NCBI GenBank assembly: GCA_027083445.1
Contig: JALWOP010000156.1
Span: 1 to 64,000 of the forward strand
Direction of reading: 5' to 3'
Length of the DNA stretch: 64,000 nt
Source: Planctomycetota bacterium
Lineage (GTDB): Bacteria > Planctomycetota > UBA1135 > GCA-002686595
In this document: positions 1 to 17,222 of the stretch, in pieces
Layout of the letters: every line of letters begins with the position of its first letter
How positions within the stretch are numbered: position 1 is the first letter of the stretch
The notes under the pieces: generated by a model
Databases searched by the model: none
Told to the model about the DNA's origin: nothing
What the model saw: only the letters and a program-made list of their open reading frames with translations
Translations under genes and position numbers: made by a program

Positions 1-23
1 CCCTGGCCCCATCGTGGACCTCT

Positions 24-2363
24 ATGCTCCGCCTCGTCGCCCTGCTCCTCCTCTCTCTTCCTCTCCTGGGCCAGGCCGATGCACGCAATGTCCAACAGGG
101 CTCTCCCATCCCCGCTGGGGGTTACAGCGCCCCACCCCGGGTCGTGCAGCTCCCCGACGACACCTGGCTCGCCGTTCTGACCACGGGCAAGGGCCCTGCA
201 GGGGATCGCGGGCGACACATCGTCAGCCGGCGTAGCCCCGATCGAGGTCAGAGCTGGGAGGGGGGAATCGATATCGAACCCGCCGGCGAACGCCCCTCTC
301 TCTGGGCACAGCCCCTACTCCTTCCATCGGGTCGGGTCGTCGTCTTCTATCTCCAAGGTGATCTCGCTGCCGCGAAGGAGCGGATCAGCCGATCCGGAGA
401 CCTAGCGCTGCGTTACTCCGATGATGGCGGCCGGAGCTGGTCCGAGCGCATCCTCCTTCCCCTCCCGGAGACGGTCCTCGCCCGTGAGCAGGACCCTGGT
501 GGCGACGTAGACGGGCTTCTTGGAACCGGCCGTCCCCTGTTCACCGCCGGGAGCGTGCTCCTGCCCTTCAGTAGAATCGGCTCCTCCCCCGACGAGCGGA
601 CCGAGGTGTGGGTCCTTCGGTCGGAAGACCTTGCCTCCCTGGATGATCCGGCGGCAGCCCACTGGCAGCTCTTCCCGGCCGGGGAAAAGGGCTTGCACGG
701 GGCCGGACCGATCACCACCGATCCCTGTCTCGCCCCGCTCCCTGGGAGAGGTGTGGCCTGTGCCATGGCCACCACGTTGGGGTATCCCCTCCTGGCGCTC
801 AGTCCCGATGGTGGCCGAACTTGGAGTGCTCCCCGCCCGCTCCGAGATCGCCGGGGACGACCGATCCGCCATCCCCGCGACAGCGTAGGCCTGTGGCGCT
901 TCGGGCCGGATCGCTACCTGCTCTGGACCCGCGAGGATTCGACTCCAACTGCGGAAAGCGGCAGGTGCAACCCGGCCTGGATCCGGGGCGCACGCCTCGT
1001 CGGCGGTGAGCTGCGTTTCGGCCCCCCCGAGATCCTGCTCTACGACCCCGACCCGCACACGGCTCCGAGCGATCCCGACCTCGTGCTAGGAAGAGACGGG
1101 TCCGTGAGTGTGGTCGTGAGCCGAGGGAGCGTCCTCCAAACCCACCCCATCGCCCCTTCCCTGCTCACCCAGCTCTTCACGACCTCCCCCGCGGAAGGTC
1201 CCCGGCGCGAGGAGCTACCCGGTTTCGTCGCCCAGGGGGCGGGTGGCACCTCCCTGGCCGCTGCTGGAAAGCTGCGCGGCGGCTGGACCTGCGAGGCCTG
1301 GCTCCCGGCCCAGGCCGAGCCGCCGTTCATCGTGGCTCAGGCCCAGGATGGGGCAGGCTCGATGGCGCTCTTCCTCGATTCCGATGGTTCCCTCGGATTG
1401 ACCCTCGCCGATGGGGATCAAGAGGTAACGGTGCGCAGCCAACCCCAGGCCCTCTCCGCCGGCAAACCCCATCACCTGGCCGTCATCGTCGATCTCGGAC
1501 CCGGGATCGTGCGCTGGATCGTCGATGGCCAGGTGCTCGACGGCGGTGAAAGCCTGGCCCGAGGATGGTCACGCATCGAAACCCGCTCACGCCCTGCCCG
1601 GGACGAGAAGCTCCTGGTCACCGATCCAGCCCAGGCTTCGATCCTGATCGAGAACGGTGACCGCTACCACCTGGCGGTACAGGCGCCGCGCAACGGCCTC
1701 CTAGTCCCTATCGGTAGGGCACAGGAACTCCGCGCGCCTTACGGCAGGGTGCGTCAGGTGGGTTTCATCTCCACCGGGGTCGGCTTTCAGGCTTCGTCGG
1801 ATCCGGGGGTTCCCTCCGACGGCCATGTACGGCTGCACTACGCCGATGGATTCTCGCAGGACTTCATCTGGAACCTGCGAGACTCCGATGGATCGGGTCG
1901 TGGAACAGCCGTCGGTCTCGTCCCGGAGGTCTGGACCTTGGTGCGGACCGATGGAAGCGAACAGTGGCCGGGGAGACGACTCTACTGGCAGTCCTTTCCG
2001 GCCGACGCCGACCGCGAACTCGTCGCCATTGAGTTCGACGCTCGCCCCGCCCAGGATGCCGATGGCAACGACGCCGAGTTCGCAGTCCTGGCCGTCTCGG
2101 AGACGCCGAGTTTCAGTCCCCTGGATGCTCCCCTCGTCCCCATCGAGCTCGACGCGGACTCCTGGAACGCGGACCTCTTCGCCGCAAGCGCTACAGACAA
2201 CGCCGGGCGCGGTTTCCGGCGGATCCCCCTGCGTCCAGCGGTAGCCATGCAGGCGATCGAGGTCCTCACCCGCGCCCCACTCGTAGTCGGCGACGCGCCT
2301 CTACGGGCTGTCCACTACGGACGTGCCCTGCTCGCGGCTGAGATCCTGGCACTCGAACGCTGA
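24..2363 (+). CDS. Secreted sialidase-like (BNR/Asp-box) protein with LamG-like domain
   Basis: A signal peptide occupies residues 1-20 (cleavage after ADA), so the protein is exported. Three Asp-boxes of the form SxDxGxxW are visible near residues 71-78, 132-139 and 260-267, spaced as in the six-bladed sialidase propeller. A LamG/concanavalin-like region follows at about 415-540, and the extreme C-terminus (YGRALLAAEI) resembles the closing strand of another LamG domain. The family usually removes terminal sialic acids or related sugars outside the cell; I did not identify the full arginine triad, so the substrate is open. It starts only 23 nt into the window, so its promoter is outside. It is convergent with the M3 peptidase gene. 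It could also be a non-catalytic carbohydrate-binding propeller. Confidence 0.78.
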   Translation: MLRLVALLLLSLPLLGQADARNVQQGSPIPAGGYSAPPRVVQLPDDTWLAVLTTGKGPAGDRGRHIVSRRSPDRGQSWEGGIDIEPAGERPSLWAQPLLLPSGRVVVFYLQGDLAAAKERISRSGDLALRYSDDGGRSWSERILLPLPETVLAREQDPGGDVDGLLGTGRPLFTAGSVLLPFSRIGSSPDERTEVWVLRSEDLASLDDPAAAHWQLFPAGEKGLHGAGPITTDPCLAPLPGRGVACAMATTLGYPLLALSPDGGRTWSAPRPLRDRRGRPIRHPRDSVGLWRFGPDRYLLWTREDSTPTAESGRCNPAWIRGARLVGGELRFGPPEILLYDPDPHTAPSDPDLVLGRDGSVSVVVSRGSVLQTHPIAPSLLTQLFTTSPAEGPRREELPGFVAQGAGGTSLAAAGKLRGGWTCEAWLPAQAEPPFIVAQAQDGAGSMALFLDSDGSLGLTLADGDQEVTVRSQPQALSAGKPHHLAVIVDLGPGIVRWIVDGQVLDGGESLARGWSRIETRSRPARDEKLLVTDPAQASILIENGDRYHLAVQAPRNGLLVPIGRAQELRAPYGRVRQVGFISTGVGFQASSDPGVPSDGHVRLHYADGFSQDFIWNLRDSDGSGRGTAVGLVPEVWTLVRTDGSEQWPGRRLYWQSFPADADRELVAIEFDARPAQDADGNDAEFAVLAVSETPSFSPLDAPLVPIELDADSWNADLFAASATDNAGRGFRRIPLRPAVAMQAIEVLTRAPLVVGDAPLRAVHYGRALLAAEILALER

Positions 2364-2386
2364 GGGGAGGGGGAGGCCCCTGGGGC

Positions 2387-4387
2387 CTAGTCCAGACCGA
2401 GGGAGCGCAGGAAGGCCTCGGAGTTCGGCTTCCGCCCGAGAAAGTCCGTTACGAGCTCCAGCTCGGGCACGGTGCCGCCCCGGGCGAGCACCTTGTGACG
2501 GTAGTCGGCCGCCGTTTCGGGGTTCATGATGCCCTCCCGGCTGAAGCGGCTGAACATGTCCGCGGCGTAGACCTTGGACCACAGATAGCCGTAGTAGCCC
2601 GCCGCATAGCCCACCAGATGTCCGAAGGAGCTCTGGTTGTGGAGGTTCTTGACGACGGGAAAGACCCGCGTCTCGCCGTAGATGCGCTCACGGACCGCGT
2701 TGGTATCGACGTCACCCGTCGGATCGCTGTGGAAGGTGAAGTCCATCAAGCCGAGGTAGACCTGCGCCTCGGTGGCCAGGCCCGAACCCAGATTCTTGGC
2801 AGCAACCATGCCGTCGAGGATCTCCTTGGGCAGCGGCTCCCCCGTCTCGTAGTGGCGCGCGAAGCGCCCCAACACATCCGCATTCCAGACCCAGTTCTCC
2901 AGCATCTGACTCGGCGCCTCCACGAAATCCCGCGCCACATGCGATCCCGAGAACTCGTAGTAGTCCACCTCGGTCAGGATGGAGTGCAGGCAGTGGCCAA
3001 ACTCGTGGAAGAGAGTCTGCACCTCCCGGTGGGACATCAGGGAGGGTTCGGTCGCGGTCGGCTTGGTGAAGTTGCAGACGAGCGCGACGCGGGGCAGGGT
3101 CAAGCTGCCGTCCAACCAGCGTTTGCGCGGGCGTAGGGGAAAGTTCGCGGCGTGGCTGTACTTGCCCGGCCGGGGGTGCAGATCGAGGTAGAACTCGCCC
3201 AAGAGGCGGCCGCTCGCCTGATCGTGAACTTGGAAAAGGCGCACGTCCTCGTGCCAGAGGAGAGGTGTCCCAGCCTCGCGAGCCTCCTCGGTGATCTCGG
3301 TGAAGCGGATCCCGAATAGATCCTGGTAGACGCCGAACATGCCATCGATCACCGCCGCCATGGGGAAATACTCGCGTAGCTTCTCGGTGTCGACCGCGTA
3401 GCGCTCGCGCATCAGCCAGTTGCGGTAGAAGGAGAAGTCCCAGGCGTACAGTTCGGCATCAGGATCCCCCGTGTGCTCGCGCTTGGCCGCGGTGAACTCG
3501 GCCAGATCCGCCAGGGCCTTCTTGCGCAGGCGCGGACGCAGATCGTCGTAGAAGGCGATCACGTTCGCGGGGTTTTCGGCCATGCGGGTCTCGGTCTGGT
3601 AGGCCGCAAAGGAGGAGTAGCCCAGAATGCGAGCCTTCTCGGCACGCAGGTGCAGCATGCGCTCCAAACGTTCGACGTTCCCCGAACCTCCCCGCAGACC
3701 GTAGAGCAGGGAGAGCTTGCGGCGCGTCTCGGGGACCTCGCAGTAGCCGAAGAAGTAGCTCGGCGCGGCTCCCTTGAGGGTGGCTTGGTACATCCCTGCC
3801 GACTGGGGCAGGCTATCGAGAAAGCGCTTTGGAACCCCCTTGGACTCCTCCGGAGAGAGGAAGGCGGTGGTTTCGTCCTCGTCGATGGCCTGGCGAAACG
3901 CAATCCCGAGATCGGTCAGCTCCCGATCGATGGCGAGCAGCCGCTCGCGAGCAGCCTCGTCGAGCCCCATCCCACCGCGACGGTAGTCCCGCAGGAGAAC
4001 CTCGAGGTAGTGGCGATCGACCCCTTCCAACTCATCGATCTTGGGCTCGAAGGAGAGCAGGACCTCATAGATGCCACGGTTCTTGTAGAGTTCGTCGAAC
4101 CAGTTCGAGAGGTCCGCTTCGGCTTGCCGACCGCGCTCTCTCTCGACCGAGTCGGTGGAGACCTTCGAGAGGAATCCCACCATGCGCGCATCGAGAAAGC
4201 AGCGCGCTTGAATGTCGTCGATCGCCCGGACCGAGTTCTCGAAGGTGCGCTCGGCGGGGGGACGCGCGAGAAGACGCTCGACCGCCTGGTTGGCCTCGGC
4301 CAGAACATCAGCGATCGGGGAGAGCGTCTCCTGGGCCGGAAGCATGGCTGAGAGGAGGAGAGCGGTAGGGATTCGACGGAGGAACAT
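2387..4387 (-). CDS. M3 family metallopeptidase (oligopeptidase A/Dcp/thimet type), exported
   Basis: The 666-aa product has a hydrophobic signal sequence (residues 1-19, ending LPAQ) and the M3 zinc motif HEFGH at 461-465. The third ligand is expected at Glu490 in the conserved context FVEAPSQ, 25 residues after the second His, which is the usual M3 spacing. Such enzymes cleave short peptides inside a closed channel. E. coli relatives are cytoplasmic, so the signal peptide suggests a periplasmic role here, as is common in Planctomycetes. The ATG lies 7 nt downstream of TAGAAT (4395-4400, minus strand), which fits a leaderless transcript. The length matches the family. Confidence 0.9.
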   Translation of the reverse strand: MFLRRIPTALLLSAMLPAQETLSPIADVLAEANQAVERLLARPPAERTFENSVRAIDDIQARCFLDARMVGFLSKVSTDSVERERGRQAEADLSNWFDELYKNRGIYEVLLSFEPKIDELEGVDRHYLEVLLRDYRRGGMGLDEAARERLLAIDRELTDLGIAFRQAIDEDETTAFLSPEESKGVPKRFLDSLPQSAGMYQATLKGAAPSYFFGYCEVPETRRKLSLLYGLRGGSGNVERLERMLHLRAEKARILGYSSFAAYQTETRMAENPANVIAFYDDLRPRLRKKALADLAEFTAAKREHTGDPDAELYAWDFSFYRNWLMRERYAVDTEKLREYFPMAAVIDGMFGVYQDLFGIRFTEITEEAREAGTPLLWHEDVRLFQVHDQASGRLLGEFYLDLHPRPGKYSHAANFPLRPRKRWLDGSLTLPRVALVCNFTKPTATEPSLMSHREVQTLFHEFGHCLHSILTEVDYYEFSGSHVARDFVEAPSQMLENWVWNADVLGRFARHYETGEPLPKEILDGMVAAKNLGSGLATEAQVYLGLMDFTFHSDPTGDVDTNAVRERIYGETRVFPVVKNLHNQSSFGHLVGYAAGYYGYLWSKVYAADMFSRFSREGIMNPETAADYRHKVLARGGTVPELELVTDFLGRKPNSEAFLRSLGLD

Positions 4388-4429
4388 GCCCTCGATTCTA
4401 GTCGCCGCCGAACCCCTAGTGGGGCCGGC

Positions 4430-4831
4430 TCAGTTCTGGGGAGGAGCGTCTAGCGCATCCAGTTCGAGAACCGCGACGCCGTCGACGACGGGAACCCGCT
4501 CGACACTCGCGCCAACCAGGCCTCCCAGGAGTTCGCCCAGAGCGCGACCCGTGCCTTGGGGGCGGCACGGTTCGCTGACGATCTCGACGCGACGCGAACG
4601 GTAGCCCGCAAGCGCCACCTCGACGTAGGTGGTCCCATCCGAGGCGCAATCGATCACCGCGGGAAGCTGGATCTGCTCGCCGGCCGCAGTCGTGCAGGTG
4701 GCCCCCTCGGGCACGCTCACCACCGTCATCGAGTGCTGTCGTGACGGCGGGGTAATGCAACCGCCGCTCACGTAGCTGGCACTGAGGAGAGCGACCCCAA
4801 GCAGGGTCCTGTGGAGCGTGTTTCGCCGCAT
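4430..4831 (-). CDS. Small putative lipoprotein with PEGA-like sequence
   Basis: The 133-aa product starts MRRNTLHR and has a hydrophobic stretch ending in SGGC (Cys25), which reads as a lipobox. The mature part, with VSVPEGATC followed by a VEVALAGYRSRRVEI segment, resembles a PEGA surface-layer-type beta fold: PEG-A motif, then a strand ending in a glycine-tyrosine turn. No catalytic residues are visible. An upstream in-frame ATG at 4858 would give 142 aa and has a -10-like TAGGAC just before it; I prefer 4831 because it gives the better signal peptide. It lies downstream of the SGNH hydrolase gene on the same strand, separated by a GC-rich repeat stretch. Confidence 0.62.
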   Translation of the reverse strand: MRRNTLHRTLLGVALLSASYVSGGCITPPSRQHSMTVVSVPEGATCTTAAGEQIQLPAVIDCASDGTTYVEVALAGYRSRRVEIVSEPCRPQGTGRALGELLGGLVGASVERVPVVDGVAVLELDALDAPPQN

Positions 4832-4874
4832 CATATCGGGTCTCTCGGCCAATCTCATTCGAAGCTGAAGTCCT

Positions 4875-4945
4875 ATCCAAGGCCCCCCCGCGGGGGTTTC
4901 CCGGGGGGCTTCCCGCCGGGAGGGTACCCCGGCGAGTTTCCCTGG
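4875..4945. repeat. GC-rich degenerate short tandem/inverted repeats, possible terminator
   Basis: The stretch contains the palindrome CCCCCGCGGGGG and several imperfect copies of a GGNNTTCCCGG-like unit, mixing short direct and inverted repeats. It lies between the stop of the SGNH hydrolase gene (4964) and the lipoprotein start on the minus strand, so the hairpins could end the upstream operon. There is no T-run to support a classical Rho-independent terminator. Read on the plus strand it would encode a Gly-Phe-Pro repeat, but no credible gene runs that way. Confidence 0.4.
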
Positions 4946-4963
4946 CTCACGGATCGTGGGGGA

Positions 4964-5923
4964 TCACTCCCCCCGGAGGAACTGCGCCAGGTAGGCCGCA
5001 ACACGGCCGTTTGCCTCTCCATTCGGATGGGTATCGAAGACGCTGGCCCAATACCCGGTCAAATCCTGCTGGTCACCGAAGGCTTCGGCCAGATCGATCC
5101 ATTGCACCCCCAGTTCCGCGCAGAGCTCGGCGGCGGCCTCATCGATCGGCCGAAAGGGGTTCTTTCTCCTGTCGGTCAGGTGAGGGTATCCCGCCACCAG
5201 GAAGCGCACCCCCCTGGCGGCACAGGCATCCCGCATACGCACAATGGCCCGTCGGACACGCTCGCCCCCGCCCTGCTCCCACTGCTCGCGGCTGATCTGG
5301 GGAGTCCTGCGCGCTAGCTGCTTGCCCAGCACCCGCAGCGCAGCCTGTTTGATGCGCACGTTGAGCCACTGCAGGAGGGCTGAGTGCAGAGGAAAGCCGT
5401 ACATGCTGTCGATGACACCGTCCGGATCGATGGCGTCGTAGTGGGGCGGCGGATCGACGTCATTGCTGTAGAAAACATAGACCACCACGTCCGGATCCAG
5501 CGGCAGCGCGTCCAGTTCGAGGACCGCCGCCACATTCCCGGCGTTGTAGCCCGGGACCCCCAGGTTGAGCACCTGGGCCTCGCCCAGCGCTTCCTGAAGG
5601 CGAACTGCCAGGGTGTCCGGCAGGTCGACCGCAGTCCCGAAGACGAACGAATCCCCCACCAAGGCCACACGCAGCTTGCCGGCCTCACGGGCAGGAAACT
5701 CCTCTCCCCGGTAGCCACGGGAGTTGAACTGGATGTCGAACCCCTTGTAGAGCGTTCGAAACCCGGGCCGGAACTCGCTGGAGAGTCCCTCCCGCTGACT
5801 GATGCGGAACGGAGTCACACCGCAGGCAGGGACACGTCGACGCAGATAGAGCTCCGGCACCGCCAGCAGGACGAGGGGCAGGAGGATGGAAAGCAGGATC
5901 CGCTTCTTCGTGGGCGGAGTCAT
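4964..5923 (-). CDS. Membrane-anchored SGNH/GDSL hydrolase
   Basis: The 319-aa product has one N-terminal membrane segment (about residues 9-24), then SGNH blocks: GDSF with the nucleophile Ser92, NLGVPGYNAGN (block II, 120-130), a SND in place of GxND around Asn154, and DTH near the C-terminus (Asp297 and His299). These enzymes are esterases, lipases or carbohydrate O-acyl hydrolases; the substrate cannot be read from sequence. The start codon overlaps the MFS stop by 4 nt (ATGA at 5920-5923), so translation is probably coupled. The long open frame upstream to 6934 is only the antisense continuation through the MFS gene. The MFS partner suggests the pair processes and moves a lipid or glycoconjugate. 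Confidence 0.85.
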   Translation of the reverse strand: MTPPTKKRILLSILLPLVLLAVPELYLRRRVPACGVTPFRISQREGLSSEFRPGFRTLYKGFDIQFNSRGYRGEEFPAREAGKLRVALVGDSFVFGTAVDLPDTLAVRLQEALGEAQVLNLGVPGYNAGNVAAVLELDALPLDPDVVVYVFYSNDVDPPPHYDAIDPDGVIDSMYGFPLHSALLQWLNVRIKQAALRVLGKQLARRTPQISREQWEQGGGERVRRAIVRMRDACAARGVRFLVAGYPHLTDRRKNPFRPIDEAAAELCAELGVQWIDLAEAFGDQQDLTGYWASVFDTHPNGEANGRVAAYLAQFLRGE

Positions 5924-7245
5924 GACGGGGAATGGTAGCCCAGGCCCGAAACGGGACCGAGTTGCCGCTGGAGTGAGCGGTTGAGCACGAGGTGCACCAC
6001 CAGGAACAGGCCTGCAAAGCCGCAGAGCGCCTTGGAATAGCCGTAGAGGTCGATCAGCCATCCCAAGGTGGGACCGAGGACGACGAAGAGCAGACGTACA
6101 CCCAGACTGGCGATCGAGTTCGCCGTGGCGCGGAACTCGGTCCGCACCCGGGAGTTGAGTCCGTCCTTGATCACGACCTGAGTCAGCCCCCGGCCGACCT
6201 GGAAACAGAAACCGAAAAGCACCGCACCGAGGGCGGTCCAGATCCCCGGACGGAGGGTGCACAGCCCCATGCCCAGATAGCCCAGGACAGGCAGCCAGCC
6301 GATCAGACGCAGGGTAGCCTGAGCGCCCAGCCGCTGCTCGATGCGGTGTGCGGACCCCCCCACCAAGGCCACGACCAGGTTGTAGGCCGCCCACAAGACG
6401 CCGAAGAGCCCGAGCGGCACCCCCGTCTCTTTCCAGATGCCCTGGAAGGCCCAGACGGCGATCAGGGTAGCCAAGCCGTAGGCGACTAGATCGAAGAGGA
6501 TCAGCCGCAGGAGCGGGGATTCGGTCACGAGCTCGCGCACGATCGTGCGCAGGTTTTCGAGATGTGTCGAGGCGTCGAACCTCGCTCGCGGAGGCTCGTG
6601 GAGGCCGAGTATGATCAGGAGAGGCACCCACCCGACGACAGCGTTGACCAGGGCAACCTGCCGTAGCGAGACGAGAACCAGGGCACCGCCGAGCAAGGCC
6701 GCGACCGTCTCCCCCGCCTGCATCCAAAAGAGTCGCCGGCCGAGAAGGCGCTTCTGAGTCACCGGTTCGCCCAGGGCCTCCAAGGAGTCGTAGAGCAGGG
6801 CGACATCGGTGCCCGAGTAGAGGCTCACCGCCACAGCAGCCAGGAGTTCGAAGGCGGCAAAATCCCAGAATCCACGACCCTGGGCGAGCAGGACATAGGC
6901 CACGCCGTGCATGACCCCCGCGACGATGAGGCATCCTTTGCGTCCCAAGAGGTCGCTGGCGTAGCCGGAGGGAACCTCCAAGATGACCACGGCGATGGCG
7001 AAGATCGCCTGCAGGCGCAGGACCCCCGACATACCCAGCCCGTGGGCCGAGAGGTACGGCACGATGACGGGCATGAAGACCATGAACATCCAGGCGAAGC
7101 CGAGCGCTTGAATGCGCGGGACGTTCGCCCGCAGGCGCTTGATGGTCTGGGTGTCCACTGCTCCTCGCTCGCTTTCCTGAGTGCCGGCTGCCGCTGGGGA
7201 GTCCTTCGCCTCCCCCATGGGAAATGGGCGAGAAAGGGGGTTCAC
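5920..7245 (-). CDS. MFS transporter
   Basis: The 441-aa protein shows about twelve hydrophobic segments after a hydrophilic N-terminus of about 40 residues. The loop SDLLGRKGCLI, near residue 100, matches the MFS signature between helices 2 and 3 (GxLaDrxGrkxxl). The substrate is not predictable. Translation starts at GTG 7245, or at ATG 7218 nine codons later. A -10-like TAGCCT (7264-7269, minus strand) sits in the 50-nt gap after the auxiliary lipoprotein gene, so this gene and the coupled SGNH gene may have their own promoter while also being read from the Mla-like operon. Confidence 0.85.
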   Translation of the reverse strand: MNPLSRPFPMGEAKDSPAAAGTQESERGAVDTQTIKRLRANVPRIQALGFAWMFMVFMPVIVPYLSAHGLGMSGVLRLQAIFAIAVVILEVPSGYASDLLGRKGCLIVAGVMHGVAYVLLAQGRGFWDFAAFELLAAVAVSLYSGTDVALLYDSLEALGEPVTQKRLLGRRLFWMQAGETVAALLGGALVLVSLRQVALVNAVVGWVPLLIILGLHEPPRARFDASTHLENLRTIVRELVTESPLLRLILFDLVAYGLATLIAVWAFQGIWKETGVPLGLFGVLWAAYNLVVALVGGSAHRIEQRLGAQATLRLIGWLPVLGYLGMGLCTLRPGIWTALGAVLFGFCFQVGRGLTQVVIKDGLNSRVRTEFRATANSIASLGVRLLFVVLGPTLGWLIDLYGYSKALCGFAGLFLVVHLVLNRSLQRQLGPVSGLGYHSPS

Positions 7246-7295
7246 TGCCGCCCGATCGGCGAGAGGCTAGCAGAAAGGAGCTCGGGCGATCCCCT

Positions 7296-7871
7296 TCAGC
7301 GGGCGGCGTTCAGGGCGCCGGCGATCTCATCGGCCGCTGCCGTGACGAGGCGCGCCAGAGCGGCCCGTGTTGCACGGGCCACGGCCTGACCCGAATCCCT
7401 CTCGATCGGCTCACGTTCTTCGAGCCGCGCCCGCAGCAGGGTGGTCCCCTCGGCATCGGCCAGATGAAGGTCCAGAGCCACACGCGCCTCGTGGGGAACG
7501 AGCTGTTCTTCGAAACCGACCAGTTCGAGGTCGAGGGCCGGCGCGGAAACCTCTTGGGTCTCCCCCACGCCGTGCCTTTCCAGGAGCTCGCTCCGTAGTC
7601 CTCGAACCACCCAGACCAGGGGCAGCTCCGTCCAGCGCCGCGTCTCGTAGTAGCCGAACTCTACCTCTCCATTGCGCCACACCATGCGGTCCCGCAAGTG
7701 GCGCGAAGCCGTCAGATGGTCCCAGCGCAACGCCGAGGTTCCGGACACCTCAACCGCAGGCTCCTGGGGCAGAGCCGCACTGAAAAAGCGCAGCGGCTGC
7801 GAGTCGCCCGCGCCCAGGCCGGAGAGGCAGCCTGCCAGAAGGAGGACGAGGGAAAGCCACAGGTACTTCAT
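7296..7871 (-). CDS. ABC-type transport auxiliary lipoprotein (PqiC/LptE-like role)
   Basis: The 191-aa product has a lipoprotein signal with LAGC lipobox (Cys15). The mature domain has the pattern of the ABC-transport auxiliary lipoprotein family that accompanies MCE operons: an early strand with LRFFSAALP, RWTELPLVWV in the middle, and a C-terminal helix. It probably sits at the outer membrane as partner of the MlaD-type MCE protein. Its start overlaps the MCE stop by 4 nt (7868-7871), so it is translationally coupled and the last gene of the transporter core. The family call rests mainly on operon position plus lipobox and size. Confidence 0.75.
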   Translation of the reverse strand: MKYLWLSLVLLLAGCLSGLGAGDSQPLRFFSAALPQEPAVEVSGTSALRWDHLTASRHLRDRMVWRNGEVEFGYYETRRWTELPLVWVVRGLRSELLERHGVGETQEVSAPALDLELVGFEEQLVPHEARVALDLHLADAEGTTLLRARLEEREPIERDSGQAVARATRAALARLVTAAADEIAGALNAAR

Positions 7872-8950
7872 TTCTTGCTGGGGAGGGGCCGGGGGGAATC
7901 GGGAGCGCGACCCTGGAGGAAGACCCCCGGTTGGCGATCGATGGTCGTGACCAGGGTCTGAACCTCGAAAAGAGTCTCACGCAGAAGCTGGAGGGTTTCG
8001 CGCAGTTCCCCAGCCATGCCGTTTCCCGTCAGGGATCCCACATCCGCCAGGGTACGCCGCAGAGCTCTGCTCGTCGCGGGTAGATCCGCCTCCTCGAGCG
8101 CGAGGCGGCCCTGCCCCAGGAGGTCGCCGGCGTCCTTGCGAATGCCGCTCACATCCGCGGCCATGCGTTCGAAGAGTCCCCCCTCGGCACCGAGCTGATC
8201 CAAGAGGCGATCCGCCTTCCAGAGCCCCTCGCGCAGGGCGTCGAGATCCTGAGTCACGCTCTCCACCAGGTTGGCCGCCTGCGCCTCCTCCAGGAGAGCG
8301 TCGAGTCGCTTCACGGTTCCCTCCAGTGCCTCGAGAGTCTCCACCATCGCGGCCTGGGAGGCGGCAACGTCCAGCGCCCCCACCTGACGCTCAACGGTCC
8401 GCGTCATCTCCGTGAAGGCCGCCAGGGCCTCGGGCAGGGATCCCGAGAGCGAGTTGAAGCTCTCCTCCATGTTCTTGAGGGTCGAGGGGGTCGACGGCAG
8501 GTACCCCCGCGGTGCTTCGAAGGAGAGCGGCGGCGGCGGAGCGGCATCCGGAAAGAAATCGACCAGGAGGAACTTCACCCCGGTCACCCCCGTCGTGGCC
8601 AGCTTCACGCGCAGATCCTGGGGAGAGTCGGATTGATAGCTCTTGATCTCCGACCGCGTCCCCAATCCAAGCCGCACCATCGCGTCGACATAGATGTCGG
8701 CGGTCACTTGAACGAGGCGATGGTCGGGAGCGATCGTGATGTCCTTCACGACCCCGATCGTGACGCCTCGCATCTTGACCGGAGCGCCGACTTCCAACCC
8801 TTGAACCGACTCATCGAAGTAGGAGACTCGCTCAACGCGATCCCGAGACAAGCGTCGTGCACCCAGGTAGAAGAGAGCCGCCACGCCGGTCGCAAGTGTC
8901 AGGCTAACCAGCAGCCCGATCTTCCAGTAGTTCGTTTCCTGGACGATCAT
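7868..8950 (-). CDS. MCE-domain (MlaD-like) lipid transport protein
   Basis: The 360-aa protein has an N-terminal membrane anchor (about residues 9-28) followed by one MCE domain (about 38-125). It includes the typical EVGAPVKMRGVTIGVVKDI stretch, where a V-x-G/R-G-V-x-VGxV-like core is visible. The C-terminal 200 residues are helical with heptad character (LESVTQDLDALREG), which in this family forms a tube or needle. The role is to bridge the inner membrane ABC transporter and outer membrane for lipid movement. It overlaps the ATPase stop (8947) and the lipoprotein start by 4 nt each. Confidence 0.9.
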   Translation of the reverse strand: MIVQETNYWKIGLLVSLTLATGVAALFYLGARRLSRDRVERVSYFDESVQGLEVGAPVKMRGVTIGVVKDITIAPDHRLVQVTADIYVDAMVRLGLGTRSEIKSYQSDSPQDLRVKLATTGVTGVKFLLVDFFPDAAPPPPLSFEAPRGYLPSTPSTLKNMEESFNSLSGSLPEALAAFTEMTRTVERQVGALDVAASQAAMVETLEALEGTVKRLDALLEEAQAANLVESVTQDLDALREGLWKADRLLDQLGAEGGLFERMAADVSGIRKDAGDLLGQGRLALEEADLPATSRALRRTLADVGSLTGNGMAGELRETLQLLRETLFEVQTLVTTIDRQPGVFLQGRAPDSPRPLPSKK

Positions 8951-9690
8951 CCAAAGTCTCCTGCCGGCAGCCGGCGGAAGAAGGTACGCACCGAGAGATT
9001 GGGTGGATTGTCGCGCAGCTCCCGGGGCTCTCCCTGCGCAATGATGCTCCGTGCTTGCCGATCCAGCATCACACAGCGTGTTCCGATCTTGAAGATGCTC
9101 TCGAGCTCGTGAGTCACGATGACCACGGTCATCCCCAGGCTGCGGCTGAGTGCCAGAATCAACTCATCGAACTCGACGGCGCTGACCGGATCGAGCCCCG
9201 CAGACGGCTCGTCGAGGAAGAGCAGATCGGTCTCCAAGGCCAAGGCACGTGCGATCCCAGCGCGCTTCTTCATCCCGCCGGATATCTCCGAAGGCAGGTG
9301 ATTCTCATAGCCGTCCAGGCCGACCAAGCGCAACTTCCAGCGCACGATCGTCTCGATCGTGCGCCTGTCGAGGTCGGTCCAACGCCGGAGGGGAAGCGCC
9401 ACGTTTTGCGCCAGAGTCATCGAACCGAAGAGGGCCCCCGATTGGAACATCACGCCGAAGGGAGGACGGCCTCCGACCACGCGGAGCGGATTGCCGACCC
9501 CCTCGATTTCGATCGTGCCCGCCAACGGCTTTTCCAGCCCGATCAGATGGCGCAGCAGCGTGGATTTTCCGCATCCCGACCCGCCGAGGATCAGGAAGAT
9601 CTCGCCGCGATGCACGTCGAAGGTCAAGCCTTCCTGGATCGCAACGCCGTCGTAGCCGATCGATAGATCCCGCACCTCGATGACGTTCAT
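8947..9690 (-). CDS. ABC transporter ATPase, MlaF-like
   Basis: The 247-aa protein has Walker A GGSGCGKST at 36-44, a Q-loop near MFQSGALF, the signature ISGGMKKRAG, Walker B LLFLDEPSAGLDP and the H-loop THELE. The SGGMKKR signature and the MFQSGALFGSMT context are characteristic of MlaF-type ATPases that energise MlaE permeases. The ATG at 9690 is chosen because it falls 2 nt after the permease stop and gives the standard length; the open frame extends further upstream only as antisense to the permease. It is the second gene of the transporter operon. Confidence 0.93.
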   Translation of the reverse strand: MNVIEVRDLSIGYDGVAIQEGLTFDVHRGEIFLILGGSGCGKSTLLRHLIGLEKPLAGTIEIEGVGNPLRVVGGRPPFGVMFQSGALFGSMTLAQNVALPLRRWTDLDRRTIETIVRWKLRLVGLDGYENHLPSEISGGMKKRAGIARALALETDLLFLDEPSAGLDPVSAVEFDELILALSRSLGMTVVIVTHELESIFKIGTRCVMLDRQARSIIAQGEPRELRDNPPNLSVRTFFRRLPAGDFG

Positions 9691-9692
9691 CC

Positions 9693-10814
9693 CTAGACCC
9701 CGAGCAGGTTGTAGAGGATCGAAAAAGCCGTGTCCGTCAGGACCAGGTAGAACATCGTCGCAACGACTGCGGAGGTCGTGCTGCGTCCGACCTCTTCCGC
9801 TCCGCCACGGGTGGCCAGGCCACGCTCGCAAGCGGTCAAGCCGATGATCGCGCCGAAGACAGCCCCCTTGAACACCCCGCCGAAGATGTCCCCCAGGCCC
9901 AAGGCGTTCTGCACCGCACCCAAATAGGAACGGTAGGTGACTTCGAGTTGGCTGGTTGCGATCAGCATCCCCCCCGCGATGCCGACCGCATCGGCCAGGA
10001 GGGTCAACATGGGGACGACGATCGTGAGAACGATCACCCGGGGAAAGACGAGGTAGCGATAGGGTGAGAAGCCCAGAGTACGCAGGGCATCGATCTCCTC
10101 GGAGACGCACATCGTGCCCATCTCCGCCGCGATGGAGGCTCCCGACCGTCCGGCGACGACGATCGCCGTCATCAGAGGCGCCAACTCGCGGGTCAAGGAG
10201 AGGCTGACGAGGTCAGCGATGAGGGAGTCCGCTCCAAACTGGGCCAACTGGAGGGAGGCCTGAAAGGCGGTGATCAGGCCGATCAAGAAGGCGATCAAGA
10301 GCACGATCGGCGCCCCGTCCGTTCCGTGGCGCTCCAGGAGCCTCCAGATGCCGCTCCAATTGAGGGTCTGGGGTCTGCGCAGAGCCGAGAGCCAGGCGCC
10401 GCTCAGGCGTCCGACGAACTCGAGGATGCGCCGAGCGACCAGGAGCTTGTTCACCGTCTCACGCCCGATCTGGTGCAGGAGGCCCTCGTGGACGGGCGGC
10501 GCTTGCAGGCAATCCCGGGCAGCCCGTTCGGTGTAGAGATCGAGGATCTGTGAAACGGAGCCGCTGGCGCCGACGAAGCTCACCGCAGCTCCCCCGCGCA
10601 TGGCATCCCCCCAGGCCTCGGCCAGGATGGCGGCGGCCCCACCATCCAGTCGGCGCACCCCGGATAGATCGAGCTGTGTCGCCGAGGGAATACGGATGAC
10701 CCGCCCGAGTTCCTCCCGCAGGCGCGGGGCTCCCTCATAGGTCAGTTCGCCCTCGATACGCACCAGAGTCCCCTCCGGTCCGACGGCGACCTCCTCGACG
10801 CTGAACTCGACCAC
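9693..10814 (-). CDS. MlaE-type permease with N-terminal STAS domain
   Basis: The 373-aa product starts at GTG. Residues 1-95 form a STAS-like domain (LDLSGVRRLDGGAAAIL resembles the MlaB/SpoIIAA phosphoacceptor region, with Ser/Asp in the loop). Residues 130-373 are the MlaE/DUF140 permease, with the conserved amphipathic segment and RELAPLMTAIVVAGRSGA. In E. coli the STAS protein MlaB is separate and binds the ATPase; here the two are fused. It is the first gene of the operon MlaE-MlaF-MlaD-lipoprotein. A -10-like TAGCGT about 44 nt upstream overlaps the promoter of the divergent gene. Confidence 0.92.
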   Translation of the reverse strand: MVEFSVEEVAVGPEGTLVRIEGELTYEGAPRLREELGRVIRIPSATQLDLSGVRRLDGGAAAILAEAWGDAMRGGAAVSFVGASGSVSQILDLYTERAARDCLQAPPVHEGLLHQIGRETVNKLLVARRILEFVGRLSGAWLSALRRPQTLNWSGIWRLLERHGTDGAPIVLLIAFLIGLITAFQASLQLAQFGADSLIADLVSLSLTRELAPLMTAIVVAGRSGASIAAEMGTMCVSEEIDALRTLGFSPYRYLVFPRVIVLTIVVPMLTLLADAVGIAGGMLIATSQLEVTYRSYLGAVQNALGLGDIFGGVFKGAVFGAIIGLTACERGLATRGGAEEVGRSTTSAVVATMFYLVLTDTAFSILYNLLGV

Positions 10815-13537: not shown

Positions 13538-13963
13538 TCAATCCCTGGGAGCCATCAGCGGAGCCCTGCCGGAGCGCCTGCGGACGCAGTTCAGGAGGCG
13601 TCGCACCCGCTCGCGCCGCAGGAGGGCCCGCTCCAGGCGGCGCTTACCGGGGAATTCGAGCACGATGAGGCCCGCTAGCAGGGTCAGGAGCCCCTGTCCG
13701 GGCAGGACGAGCATGGCCAGGCCGGCCGCCAGCAGCAGCAGCCCCAGGACCATGCGCAGACCCCGTAGGGCCCAGCGCAGGGCCCGATGCCGGTGAGCCC
13801 AGGGTGAGGGAGGAGCTTCCAGTCTCAGGAAATAATCCGCGGGTATGCGAGCGATGAGGAGGGGAACCGCCAGAAGAGAGAGCACGGAAATAGCCACACC
13901 CACCCCTAGGACGACTTCCGCCCAGGGGCCTGGCCAGGTCAGCTCGAGCAAGGAGAGATGCAT
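13538..13963 (-). CDS. Small PGPGW-type transmembrane protein
   Basis: The 141-aa protein has two or three hydrophobic segments (about 18-38 and 68-100) and the motif LVLPGQGLLTLLAGLIVLE, which matches the PGPG-W/LPGPG core of the putative transmembrane PGPGW family. A basic C-terminal tail follows (KRRLERALLRRERVRRLL). Function is unknown. The ATG at 13963 faces the divergent AT-hook gene across a 180-nt gap. TAGGAT, about 36 nt upstream, is a candidate -10. Confidence 0.7.
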   Translation of the reverse strand: MHLSLLELTWPGPWAEVVLGVGVAISVLSLLAVPLLIARIPADYFLRLEAPPSPWAHRHRALRWALRGLRMVLGLLLLAAGLAMLVLPGQGLLTLLAGLIVLEFPGKRRLERALLRRERVRRLLNCVRRRSGRAPLMAPRD

Positions 13964-14078
13964 CCAGAGTCCGGGAGAGCTTGGTACTCCATAATCCTAG
14001 TCCCTCCTGGCAAAAGCCTCCTCCGTTCCCGCGAGAGGTTAAACTCACGAATGGAAAGCAAAGTCTCGGGTTTCATCG

Positions 14079-14107
14079 TTGAAAATCGAAGCCGGGGTCG
14101 ATACGAA
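14079..14107 (+). promoter_or_regulatory. Sigma70-like promoter of the AT-hook gene
   Basis: TTGAAA (14079-14084) and TACGAA (14102-14107) are separated by 17 nt. This is the clearest two-part promoter in the window. The ATG of the AT-hook gene follows 36 nt after the -10, leaving a leader of about 30 nt. The region is visibly AT-richer than its surroundings. Confidence 0.5.
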
Positions 14108-14143
14108 TTCCGTCCTCTCTCGGAATCTACCCCCCAGACTCCT

Positions 14144-14644
14144 ATGCCTAAGAAAAACACCGAAGCAGAAATCCAAGCCCTCGTCGACACGTTCGTCGCG
14201 GAGCTTTCGGGACTGATCCAAAGGTCCGCCGTCGAAGCCGCCATGGAGGCGCTGAGCGGTTCGCTCGGGGCCCCCGTCAAGCGTGGCCCGGGCCGCCCGC
14301 GGAAGACCGCAGCACCTGCCGCCCCCAAGGCCACCGCCACTGCGCCCAAAAAGCGCAGCAAAAGGGGACGCCGCTCATCCAAGTCCGTTGCGCGCATGGC
14401 GGAACGCGCACTCCAATACGTCAAGAGCCATCCCGACTGCTCCGTCGGTGAGATGGGTAGGGCCTTGAACACCACCACCAAGGAACTCCGTCTGCCCTTG
14501 ATGAAGCTGACCGCGGAGAATCTGATCCACACGGTCGGACAGAAGCGCGGGACGCGCTATCGCCCCGGCGCCGGTAGTGCGCGCAAGGCAGCCCCCCGCA
14601 AGAAGGCGGCCAAGAAAGCCACCCGCCGCAGGAAGAAGAAGTAG
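14144..14644 (+). CDS. AT-hook / histone H1-like DNA-binding protein
   Basis: The 166-aa basic protein has four parts. An N-terminal acidic/hydrophobic helix spans 1-40. A canonical AT-hook core RGPGRPRK lies at 47-54. A compact domain at about 83-140 (AERALQYVKSHPDCSVGEMGRALN, then KLTAENLIHTVGQKRGTRY) reads as a winged helix. The Lys/Arg/Ala tail (148-166, ending RRRKKK) resembles eukaryotic H1 and bacterial H1-like proteins. The likely role is nucleoid organisation or broad transcription control. ATG 14144 is chosen because the open frame upstream has no gene-like sequence and a promoter lies in it. A 15-bp hairpin follows 102 nt after the stop. Confidence 0.82.
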   Translation: MPKKNTEAEIQALVDTFVAELSGLIQRSAVEAAMEALSGSLGAPVKRGPGRPRKTAAPAAPKATATAPKKRSKRGRRSSKSVARMAERALQYVKSHPDCSVGEMGRALNTTTKELRLPLMKLTAENLIHTVGQKRGTRYRPGAGSARKAAPRKKAAKKATRRRKKK

Positions 14645-14926: not shown

Positions 14927-14946
14927 AATACAGGGGTATTCTTGTA
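14927..14946. promoter_or_regulatory. Candidate BlaI operator upstream of the blaI-M56 operon
   Basis: AATAC-AGGG-GTATT (14927-14940) is a perfect inverted repeat, and TACA (14929-14932) with TGTA (14943-14946) gives a second, wider TACA-N10-TGTA dyad. Known BlaI/MecI sites carry TACA/TGTA half-sites. The position, about 35-50 nt before the repressor start, fits autoregulation. The sites are short and could be chance. Confidence 0.4.
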
Positions 14947-14979: not shown

Positions 14980-15372
14980 ATGGGCCACGACGACCTCCCC
15001 GACGCTGAATTCGACCTGCTGGCGGTCCTGTGGAACCAGGGTCCCGCCACCCTGCGCGTGGTGCGCGAGGCCCTGGCGGAGCGCCGGCCGATGACCCATG
15101 GCGCAGCGGCTGTCTTGATGGGCCGCCTCGAAGAGAAGGGCCTGGTCGAGCGCACGGGCGAGAAAGAGGGCAAGGCCTTCGTCTACCGTGCCCGTCCCGT
15201 CGCCCAGGGCCGACTGCGAGCCCGCATCGAGGACCTGGCCCAGCGACTCTTCGGCGGCGATCCCATCGGACTGGTCTCCTCGCTCTTTGGAGAGAAGCCC
15301 CCCACGGCCGAGCAGGTTGCCGACCTCGAGCGCCTGCTCGCCGACCTCAAGCGGCGCCGGAGGAGGTCATGA
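14980..15372 (+). CDS. BlaI/MecI/CopY family transcriptional repressor
   Basis: The 130-aa protein has the BlaI winged helix: LPDAEFDLLAVLWNQGPATL at the N-terminus, TLRVVREAL, and the recognition region HGAAAVLMGRLEEKGLVER. A helical dimerisation region ends in a basic cluster. Such repressors hold off their own operon until the partner M56 protease cleaves or triggers them. ATG 14980 gives the usual family length; an upstream in-frame ATG at 14875 would overlap the candidate operator. The stop overlaps the M56 ATG by 4 nt, giving coupled translation. Confidence 0.9.
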   Translation: MGHDDLPDAEFDLLAVLWNQGPATLRVVREALAERRPMTHGAAAVLMGRLEEKGLVERTGEKEGKAFVYRARPVAQGRLRARIEDLAQRLFGGDPIGLVSSLFGEKPPTAEQVADLERLLADLKRRRRRS

Positions 15373-17222
15373 ACGGATCGACCTGGCTCGCTTGGCTCCT
15401 ACCCCAGGCCCTGCAGGTGGCCGTCGTCGCCCTGGTGGTGGCTCTTTGCCTGCACCTTCCCCTGGCGCGTCGAGCCGGCGTCAGACTGGCGTTGCTCGCG
15501 GTCCTCGGGCTGAAACTCGCTTGCCCTCTCCTCGTCGCCCCCACCTCTCTTTTCGGGCTCTCCTTCATCGCCCCGGCTACGCGAGCGCTCCAGGCATCGG
15601 TTCCCGGACCGGCGGCGCTCTTTCAGCAAGTCCAGGAACCCCACGGGCGTGCCGAGGAGGCTCGCTCCGCCACCTCCCAGGCGACCTCCACGCCACCCGC
15701 GAAGAGCCCCCCCGCCTCGACCTGGGCCGACCGGGCACTGCTCCTCTACCTCTTGGGTGTGCTCGTCGGAACGGCCCGAATGCTCTCCGCGGGGCGGTTC
15801 CTGCACCGCATCGGGAGGGAGGGCCGACCGCTAACACAGGTCGAGGGATTCGACGCCAAGGGAGCCGCGATTCGCACGAGTGATCGAGTCTCGGCACCCA
15901 TCTGCTTCGGCATTCTTCGCCCGACGATTCTGCTCCCCGAGGAGTTCGAGGGGCGGATCAGCGCCGAGATGCGCCGCACGGTCCTCTTGCACGAGCGGAC
16001 TCACCTCGCCCTGCGCGACCCCCTCTGGCTCGCGGTCGCACGACTCCTGCGCATCCTCTGGTGGTTCCACCCCGCCGTCTGGTGGCTCACGCCGGCCCTG
16101 CGGCGGGTGCTCGAGGATCGTTGCGACGAGCGCCTCCTGGCCACCCTCGATCCGGTGCGATACGGCGAAACCCTCCTCGCCGTCGCCTCGCGGCTCTCCG
16201 CTCCTTCCCTCCCCGGCCTCAGCCTGAGCATGGCCCAGCGCGAGCACGTTCTCGCCGCACGCCTGCGCAGGATTCTCGACCCCGACTTCCCCAAAGCCAA
16301 GAGGACCCCGATGTCCGTCTACGCCCTCCCCCTCCTGCTCGCCATTACGCTGGTACCCGCAGCCCGCCCCGCTCAGGACGAAGCTCTGCGAGGCGAAACC
16401 GGTTCGTCTCAGCCCTCCCTCGAACAGTCCGTCGACCGCGCCCTGGCCCATCTCGTTCAAACCTCAGGGTTGGAGAAGGCCGCAGTGGAAAGTGACGCCC
16501 TGACTCTGCTCGCCCTCTTGGGCGGGGGTGAGACCTCGCAGAGGGGACCCCATCACAAGGAGCTCGCCAAGCTGCGGGCGCGAGTCCGCGACGCCGTCGG
16601 CACCGGCGACTCAGCCTTGACCCCGGGCGAGGCCCTCGCGGCCGCCGCCCTGGCCGAGCATTACGTCCTCAATGGAAGCCCCCGCGAGGAGCAGATCGAT
16701 GTCGACCACGCCGTCACCCGCGCGGTAGCCACCCTCGAGACGCCCAAGGCGGATCTGGGCGCCTCCTTCTGGTCGGTCATGACCCTGCTCTCGGCCGAGA
16801 CCAGCGCCCCGGCCATGGATCATCTCCAAGACTGGTTCCCCCTGGGGACGACCCAGGGCGCGGCGGGTTGGAGCGAGAACGCGACACGAGCCGCTTCTGT
16901 CTTCCTCTACCTGGCCACGGGCGGCTCTGCCGACTCCCCCGACCTAAAAGCCCAGGTCCACTCCCTCTCGGCCGGGTGGGAACCGACCGAGGATCCCTGG
17001 GGAACCGAACTCACGGCCCTCGCCCTGTTCCAGGTGGGCGGCCCCCCCTGGCATGAGTGGAACGCTTCCGTGCTCGAGAAGTTGGAGTCAAGCCTGCGCG
17101 AAGATGGCAGCTTTCCGGCCTCCTCGAGTCTCGACGCGCGCAGCGCCCAAGCCCTGCTCACCCTGGCCTTGGAAGTGCGCCACCGCTATGCACGGGTCGT
17201 CTCGGGCTCGGAGAGGCGCTGA
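15369..17222 (+). CDS. M56 (BlaR1/MecR1-like) membrane metalloprotease with C-terminal alpha-helical domain
   Basis: The 617-aa product has membrane segments at about 10-30, 38-58 and 122-140, then the gluzincin motif HERTH at 208-212. The conserved follow-up (ALRDPLWL, ILWWFHPAVWW, and EDRCDERLLA as probable third ligand region) is all typical of M56. A fourth membrane segment is near 317-333. BlaR1 normally ends in a penicillin-binding sensor; here residues 340-617 are instead Ala/Leu-rich with repeated helices (VDRALAHLVQTSG, VTRAVATLE, TRAASVFLYLATGG, ARSAQALLTLALEV). This looks like a prenyltransferase/squalene-cyclase-type alpha-toroid. No SxxK sensor motif is visible. It presumably inactivates the adjoining BlaI on an unknown signal. 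Confidence 0.87.
   Translation: MNGSTWLAWLLPQALQVAVVALVVALCLHLPLARRAGVRLALLAVLGLKLACPLLVAPTSLFGLSFIAPATRALQASVPGPAALFQQVQEPHGRAEEARSATSQATSTPPAKSPPASTWADRALLLYLLGVLVGTARMLSAGRFLHRIGREGRPLTQVEGFDAKGAAIRTSDRVSAPICFGILRPTILLPEEFEGRISAEMRRTVLLHERTHLALRDPLWLAVARLLRILWWFHPAVWWLTPALRRVLEDRCDERLLATLDPVRYGETLLAVASRLSAPSLPGLSLSMAQREHVLAARLRRILDPDFPKAKRTPMSVYALPLLLAITLVPAARPAQDEALRGETGSSQPSLEQSVDRALAHLVQTSGLEKAAVESDALTLLALLGGGETSQRGPHHKELAKLRARVRDAVGTGDSALTPGEALAAAALAEHYVLNGSPREEQIDVDHAVTRAVATLETPKADLGASFWSVMTLLSAETSAPAMDHLQDWFPLGTTQGAAGWSENATRAASVFLYLATGGSADSPDLKAQVHSLSAGWEPTEDPWGTELTALALFQVGGPPWHEWNASVLEKLESSLREDGSFPASSSLDARSAQALLTLALEVRHRYARVVSGSERR

What the first reader, a model, noticed from the sequence alone, without database searches (positions are those of the whole stretch)
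15369..17222. BlaI-M56 pair whose sensor is replaced by an alpha-toroid-like domain
The M56 protease has HERTH and coupled BlaI, but instead of a penicillin-binding sensor it ends in about 275 Ala/Leu-rich residues with repeated helices, like prenyltransferase or terpenoid-cyclase barrels. A candidate AATAC-AGGG-GTATT operator precedes the operon. It may sense a lipid or other ligand rather than a beta-lactam.
Basis: partly seen in the sequence, partly recalled or inferred. Interest (0 to 1): 0.62.

Follow-up and report, generated by a model that had tools for sequence, protein, structure and literature searches.

The report
BlaR1-like protease receptor with toroid sensor
A bacterial gene pair related to the switch that turns on penicillin resistance carries, in place of the penicillin-sensing part, a domain descended from a ring-shaped protein family related to squalene-hopene cyclase; the same combination recurs across this bacterial phylum and suggests an undescribed kind of envelope-signal receptor.

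Summary
14980-15372 encodes a BlaI-type repressor and 15369-17222 an M56 (BlaR1-type) membrane protease that keeps the active-site residues (H208, E209, H212, E249, D253). Its C-terminus (336-617) has no penicillin-sensor motif. The toroid reading is supported by homology: the C-terminus aligns over 237 columns with a planctomycete family of membrane-anchored toroid proteins (hhalign 98.1%, E 1.4e-13; paralogue control 0.3%), and that family's profile matches squalene-hopene cyclase (E 2.8e-10). AlphaFold was too weak to show the fold. Eleven further genomes of the phylum carry M56-toroid fusions, with BlaI directly upstream wherever that DNA is present; the M56 tree rejects a single origin (p-AU 0.0007). 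The operator is of the canonical BlaI class: TACANNTGTA is perfect in 18 of 59 related promoters (0.05 expected); here it has one mismatch inside an extended palindrome. This copy is a stripped outlier: it keeps 22 of 60 family-invariant residues (other fusion toroids 35-53) and has lost the conserved aromatic motifs. Best reading: a BlaR1-like receptor whose outside input domain is an alpha-toroid, with its own operon as the only visible target. The ligand is unknown; a lipid is possible but not favoured by the evidence.

The parts
14927..14940 (.). candidate BlaI operator AATACAGGGGTATT; its core TACAGGGGTA is one mismatch from TACANNTGTA
   Evidence: only match in the window at up to 1 mismatch and only exact copy in the genome; TACANNTGTA is perfect in 18 of 59 related BlaI upstreams against 0.05 in shuffles
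14980..15372 (+). BlaI/MecI-type winged-helix repressor, 130 aa
   Evidence: PF03965 E 7.1e-17
15360..15366 (+). likely ribosome-binding site (GAGGAGG) of the M56 gene
   Evidence: sequence itself
15369..17222 (+). M56-toroid fusion protein, 617 aa
15369..16373 (+). M56 membrane protease part, residues 1-335; hydrophobic helices at 14-32, 40-58, 123-141, 314-332
   Evidence: PF05569 E 7.1e-29; hydropathy
15990..16004 (+). zinc motif HERTH (H208, E209, H212); third ligand E249 at 16113-16115, D253 at 16125-16127, R298 at 16260-16262
   Evidence: aligned with BlaR1 8exp; invariant in the aligned fusions
15543..15722 (+). region equivalent to extracellular loop EL1, about residues 59-118
   Evidence: lies between TM2 and TM3; role by analogy with BlaR1 (PMC9834060)
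16374..17219 (+). extracytoplasmic C-terminus, residues 336-617, with a divergent alpha-toroid domain (homology over residues 373-613)
   Evidence: hhalign 98.1%, E 1.4e-13 against solo toroids; HMM E 1.2e-15 for the ORF; control 0.3%

Best explanation
A BlaR1/MecR1-like signalling pair. BlaI represses its own operon from a TACANNTGTA-type operator. The M56 protein sits in the membrane with its zinc protease facing the cytoplasm and its C-terminus outside. A change in the outside toroid domain (bound ligand, protein partner or envelope stress) is passed through loop EL1 and TM3 to the protease, which cleaves BlaI and derepresses the operon. Shown: the gene pair, conserved protease residues, predicted topology, toroid homology, recurrence in 12 genomes, operator class. 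Inferred from S. aureus BlaR1: BlaI cleavage and the signal path. Unknown: the input and any target beyond the operon.
For: Protease residues aligned with BlaR1 and invariant in the fusions; C-terminus after the last helix; toroid homology with a negative control; 11 further genomes with fusions, BlaI upstream in all where the DNA is present; more than one origin of the fusion in the M56 tree, which suggests selection for the combination; operator class; in one relative an ExbD gene and an anchored toroid gene stand directly before BlaI-M56; BlaR1 mechanism in PMC9834060.
Against: No experiment and no known ligand. This copy keeps only 22 of 60 family-invariant residues. AlphaFold is of low confidence. 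No target outside the operon was found. No orthologue of this particular copy was found, and the locus is not conserved beside ychF in 13 relatives.
Confidence: 0.6

Rival explanations
1. The toroid of this copy is vestigial: the input domain is degenerating and the protease is constitutive or responds through its membrane part only.
For: 22 of 60 family-invariant residues kept, 18 lost in gaps, QDGxW and aromatic motifs gone; very long branch in the toroid tree; no orthologue found.
Against: The ORF is intact with the same codon-position composition as the M56 part; homology still runs to the last residues and the GGPxWxxWN and LEVxxRYARV stretches are kept.
Confidence: 0.2
2. The toroid is an enzyme (terpenoid cyclase or lyase type) that is tethered to the M56 protein rather than a sensor.
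For: Family profile matches squalene-hopene cyclase; the other fusions keep the conserved aromatic motifs.
Against: The domain sits where BlaR1 carries its sensor; this copy has lost those motifs; no substrate-pathway genes lie beside it.
Confidence: 0.08
3. It is an ordinary beta-lactam sensor with an unrecognised penicillin-binding domain.
For: BlaI-M56 pairs classically control beta-lactam resistance; one fusion (L074) has a penicillin-amidase-family gene downstream.
Against: No SxxK or KTG motif; no sequence match to the sensor domain of BlaR1; homology to toroids instead.
Confidence: 0.03
4. The toroid is a protein-docking domain, as in complement TED, that reads a partner such as an anchored toroid or ExbB/ExbD-type energised complex rather than a small molecule.
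For: The profile also matches TEP1 and C3d; the PD40-toroid, ExbD, BlaI, M56 gene order in L117; pocket residues lost in this copy.
Against: Only one such gene cluster was seen; the main fusion clade keeps the pocket-type residues.
Confidence: 0.3

Closest known systems
BlaR1-BlaI / MecR1-MecI (S. aureus, B. licheniformis)
   Same: BlaI-type repressor coupled to an M56 membrane protease with HExxH...E...D, topology pattern, TACANNTGTA-type operator
   Different: No penicillin-binding sensor; an alpha-toroid-family domain instead; no resistance gene beside it
M. tuberculosis BlaR1 homologue (BlaI-BlaR)
   Same: M56 protease without a penicillin-binding sensor (PMC9834060)
   Different: That protein lacks an equivalent sensor domain; here a toroid takes that place
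Planctomycete TM-anchored toroid proteins with SQHop_cyclase_C similarity (own-genome example L058)
   Same: Homologous toroid over nearly its whole length, including the LEVxxRY tail
   Different: They carry one N-terminal helix and a Pro/Glu-rich linker instead of an M56 protease, and keep the conserved motifs
Squalene-hopene cyclase
   Same: Remote homology of the toroid family (E 2.8e-10)
   Different: Single toroid; most of the family-conserved motifs are missing in this copy; fused to a membrane protease

Membership tests
Peptidase family M56 | PF05569 domain with HExxH, downstream Glu and Asp | tested here: met
   E 7.1e-29; H208, E209, H212, E249, D253 aligned with BlaR1
BlaI/MecI repressor family | Penicillinase_R winged helix coupled to M56 | tested here: met
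   PF03965 E 7.1e-17; 4-bp overlap with the M56 gene
BlaI/MecI repressor family | TACANNTGTA operator at its own promoter | tested here: met
   one mismatch from the consensus inside a longer palindrome; consensus validated on 59 related promoters
BlaR1/MecR1 beta-lactam sensors | C-terminal penicillin-binding sensor with SxxK and KTG | tested here: not met
   motifs absent; no match to the sensor
BlaR1/MecR1 beta-lactam sensors | Proteolysis of BlaI on induction | not testable with these tools
   needs experiment
Alpha-toroid (SQHop_cyclase_C-like) domains | Sequence homology to the family | tested here: met
   hhalign 98.1% over 237 columns, control 0.3%; HMM E 1.2e-15
Alpha-toroid (SQHop_cyclase_C-like) domains | Alpha-alpha toroid fold | tested here: inconclusive
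   all-helical model, pLDDT 56, pTM 0.52; PDB matches include squalene cyclases, complement C5 and MstE but none below E 0.001
Alpha-toroid (SQHop_cyclase_C-like) domains | Family-conserved motifs (QDGxW, NPYxAWRY, DxYYW, GGRVYSTA) | tested here: not met
   22 of 60 invariant residues kept; these motifs lost

The most novel reading that the evidence does not exclude
An undescribed class of BlaR1-like receptors in this phylum in which an alpha-toroid domain, recruited more than once from an envelope protein family found in most of its genomes, senses a non-beta-lactam signal; the window copy has rebuilt its pocket for a different input.
Probability: 0.4. Interest if true: 0.65.

Novelty: new variant of a known kind. 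Interest (0 to 1): 0.5.

Why it matters
BlaI-M56 pairs are usually read as beta-lactam resistance switches. A recurrent toroid version supports the view of the M56 protease as a platform with exchangeable outside domains (PDZ, TPR and others are also seen), warns against annotating such genes as resistance regulators, and gives a handle on the function of the phylum's very common but uncharacterised anchored toroid proteins.

Tried and rejected
AlphaFold of the C-terminus alone (pLDDT 43.8) and with one viral-contig homologue (55.9): too weak to prove a fold. Viral-contig scans for more toroid homologues gave only two contigs with the same protein. The idea that this copy is its own independent fusion from a solo toroid is suggested by higher identity to solo toroids (26-30% against 17-21%) and the shared tail, but is not established: the toroid tree does not reject one origin of all fusions (p 0.12) and the M56 tree does not reject grouping it with the main fusion clade (p 0.225). 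Regulon search: the exact palindrome occurs once in the assembly, and perfect TACANNTGTA sites in the fetched fusion neighbourhoods lie only at the BlaI promoters. A weak hit of my BlaI model beside the solo toroid L053 reads by eye as an ArsR-like protein and was dropped. Gene order: in 13 relatives no homologue of the pair lies within 1.5 kb of ychF. No sigma-70-like promoter was found upstream. Five literature searches found no description of this architecture; most subscription papers are not in that library.

Full report
What is there. The ORF at 15369-17222 (+) starts with an ATG that overlaps the stop of a 130-aa ORF at 14980-15372 (ATGA), with GAGGAGG just upstream. The first gene is a BlaI-type repressor (PF03965, E 7.1e-17), the second an M56 protease (PF05569, E 7.1e-29, residues 18-300). 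Four hydrophobic segments at 14-32, 40-58, 123-141 and 314-332 put HERTH (208-212) between TM3 and TM4 and leave residues 336-617 after the last helix. The phmmer alignment to solved S. aureus BlaR1 (8exp) pairs H208/E209/H212/E249/D253 with H201/E202/H205/E242/D246. R298, invariant in the aligned fusions, is probably the counterpart of R293/R294. The published BlaR1 structure has the protease facing the cytoplasm and the C-terminal sensor outside (PMC9834060).

The C-terminus. Alone it hits nothing in Pfam or NCBIfam and contains no SxxK or KTG. In relatives, blastp found a family of membrane-anchored proteins at E 6e-12 and weaker, one of them in the window's own genome; these carry SQHop_cyclase_C matches. 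A profile made from that family without the window protein hits it at E 1.2e-15. hhalign of the single sequence against 16 solo toroids gives 98.1% over 237 columns; the C-terminus of an M56 paralogue of the same genome gives 0.3%. The family profile, without the window sequence, matches squalene-hopene cyclase at E 2.8e-10; with fusions and the window sequence added it reaches 2e-15 and also matches TEP1 and, weakly, complement C3d. The toroid reading therefore rests on homology. AlphaFold gave an all-helical model of low confidence (pLDDT 43.8 alone, 55.9 with one homologue). Its PDB matches include squalene cyclases, complement C5 and the terpene cyclase MstE, but none passes E 0.001.

Recurrence. 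The same HMM finds toroids on the C-termini of M56 proteins in genomes G115, G139, G044, G142, G030 (two in tandem) and G006; a phylum search adds G310, G365, G323, G004 and G156. With the window's this makes 12 genomes from six families. BlaI lies directly upstream in all 11 where the upstream DNA is present. The phylum search scored only two candidates per genome, so the number is a lower bound. All named relatives found with the protein are Planctomycetota, so the window very probably is too. In the M56 tree one origin of all fusions is rejected (p-AU 0.0007); in the toroid tree it is not (p 0.12). The window protein has a long branch and its place is open in both. Other M56 proteins of the group end in PDZ, TPR, SHOCT-like or secretin-like stretches. 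In one relative (L117) an ExbD gene and a PD40-toroid gene stand immediately before BlaI-M56.

How this copy differs. Of 60 residues invariant in the 16 solo toroids, the other fusion toroids keep 35-53; this one keeps 22, with 18 in gaps. The QDGxW, NPYxAWRY, DxYYW and GGRVYSTA motifs are gone, whereas GGPxWxxWN and LEVxxRYARV remain. Composition by codon position is unchanged along the ORF, so it is still coding, but whether it still binds the family's ligand is doubtful.

Operator. AATACAGGGGTATT at 14927-14940 has a TACAGGGGTA core. Across 59 BlaI upstreams of related loci TACANNTGTA is perfect in 18 and has one mismatch in 8, against 0.05 and 1.3 in shuffles. Six of the fusion loci have perfect sites and two more have one mismatch. 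The exact palindrome occurs once in the genome, and perfect sites in the fusion neighbourhoods occur only at BlaI promoters, so the visible target is the operon itself. The assembly is 87% complete, so other targets could be missing.

Mechanism. By analogy with BlaR1, an outside event on the toroid moves EL1 (about residues 59-118 here) and TM3, the protease becomes able to cut BlaI, and the operon is derepressed. This step is inference. What the toroid reads is unknown: lipid, glycan and protein inputs are all open, and loss of the conserved residues makes a plain terpenoid ligand less likely for this copy.

Novelty. Five literature searches found no description of this architecture. It is a new variant of the BlaI-M56 kind. 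It is not a member of the beta-lactam-sensing BlaR1 family, whose defining sensor was tested and is absent.

Noticed in passing
L117 (G004:C63) 3-10462: Gene row TPR, ExbD, PD40-toroid with a membrane helix, BlaI, M56, then a coiled-coil protein: ties anchored toroids to ExbD and to a BlaI-M56 pair.
   Followed up: partly
L077 (G030) 1317-4913: M56 protein of about 1199 aa with two toroid domains in tandem, with two perfect TACANNTGTA sites just upstream of its BlaI.
   Followed up: partly
L114 8183-9733 (own genome, contig C2): Solo TM-anchored toroid with a Pro/Glu-rich TonB-like linker; 331 of 392 sampled genomes of the phylum give a match to the M56-toroid model, mostly to such solo toroids.
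   Followed up: partly
window 9696-10814: MlaE-type lipid-transport permease with STAS domain about 4 kb upstream of the operon; no evidence of a link to it.
   Followed up: no
L074 5761-8001: Penicillin-amidase-family gene about 200 bp downstream of an M56-toroid fusion on the same strand.
   Followed up: no
window 13958-14641: Lys/Ala/Arg-rich 228-aa ORF without Pfam match that looks like a histone-type DNA-binding protein, just upstream of the operon.
   Followed up: no
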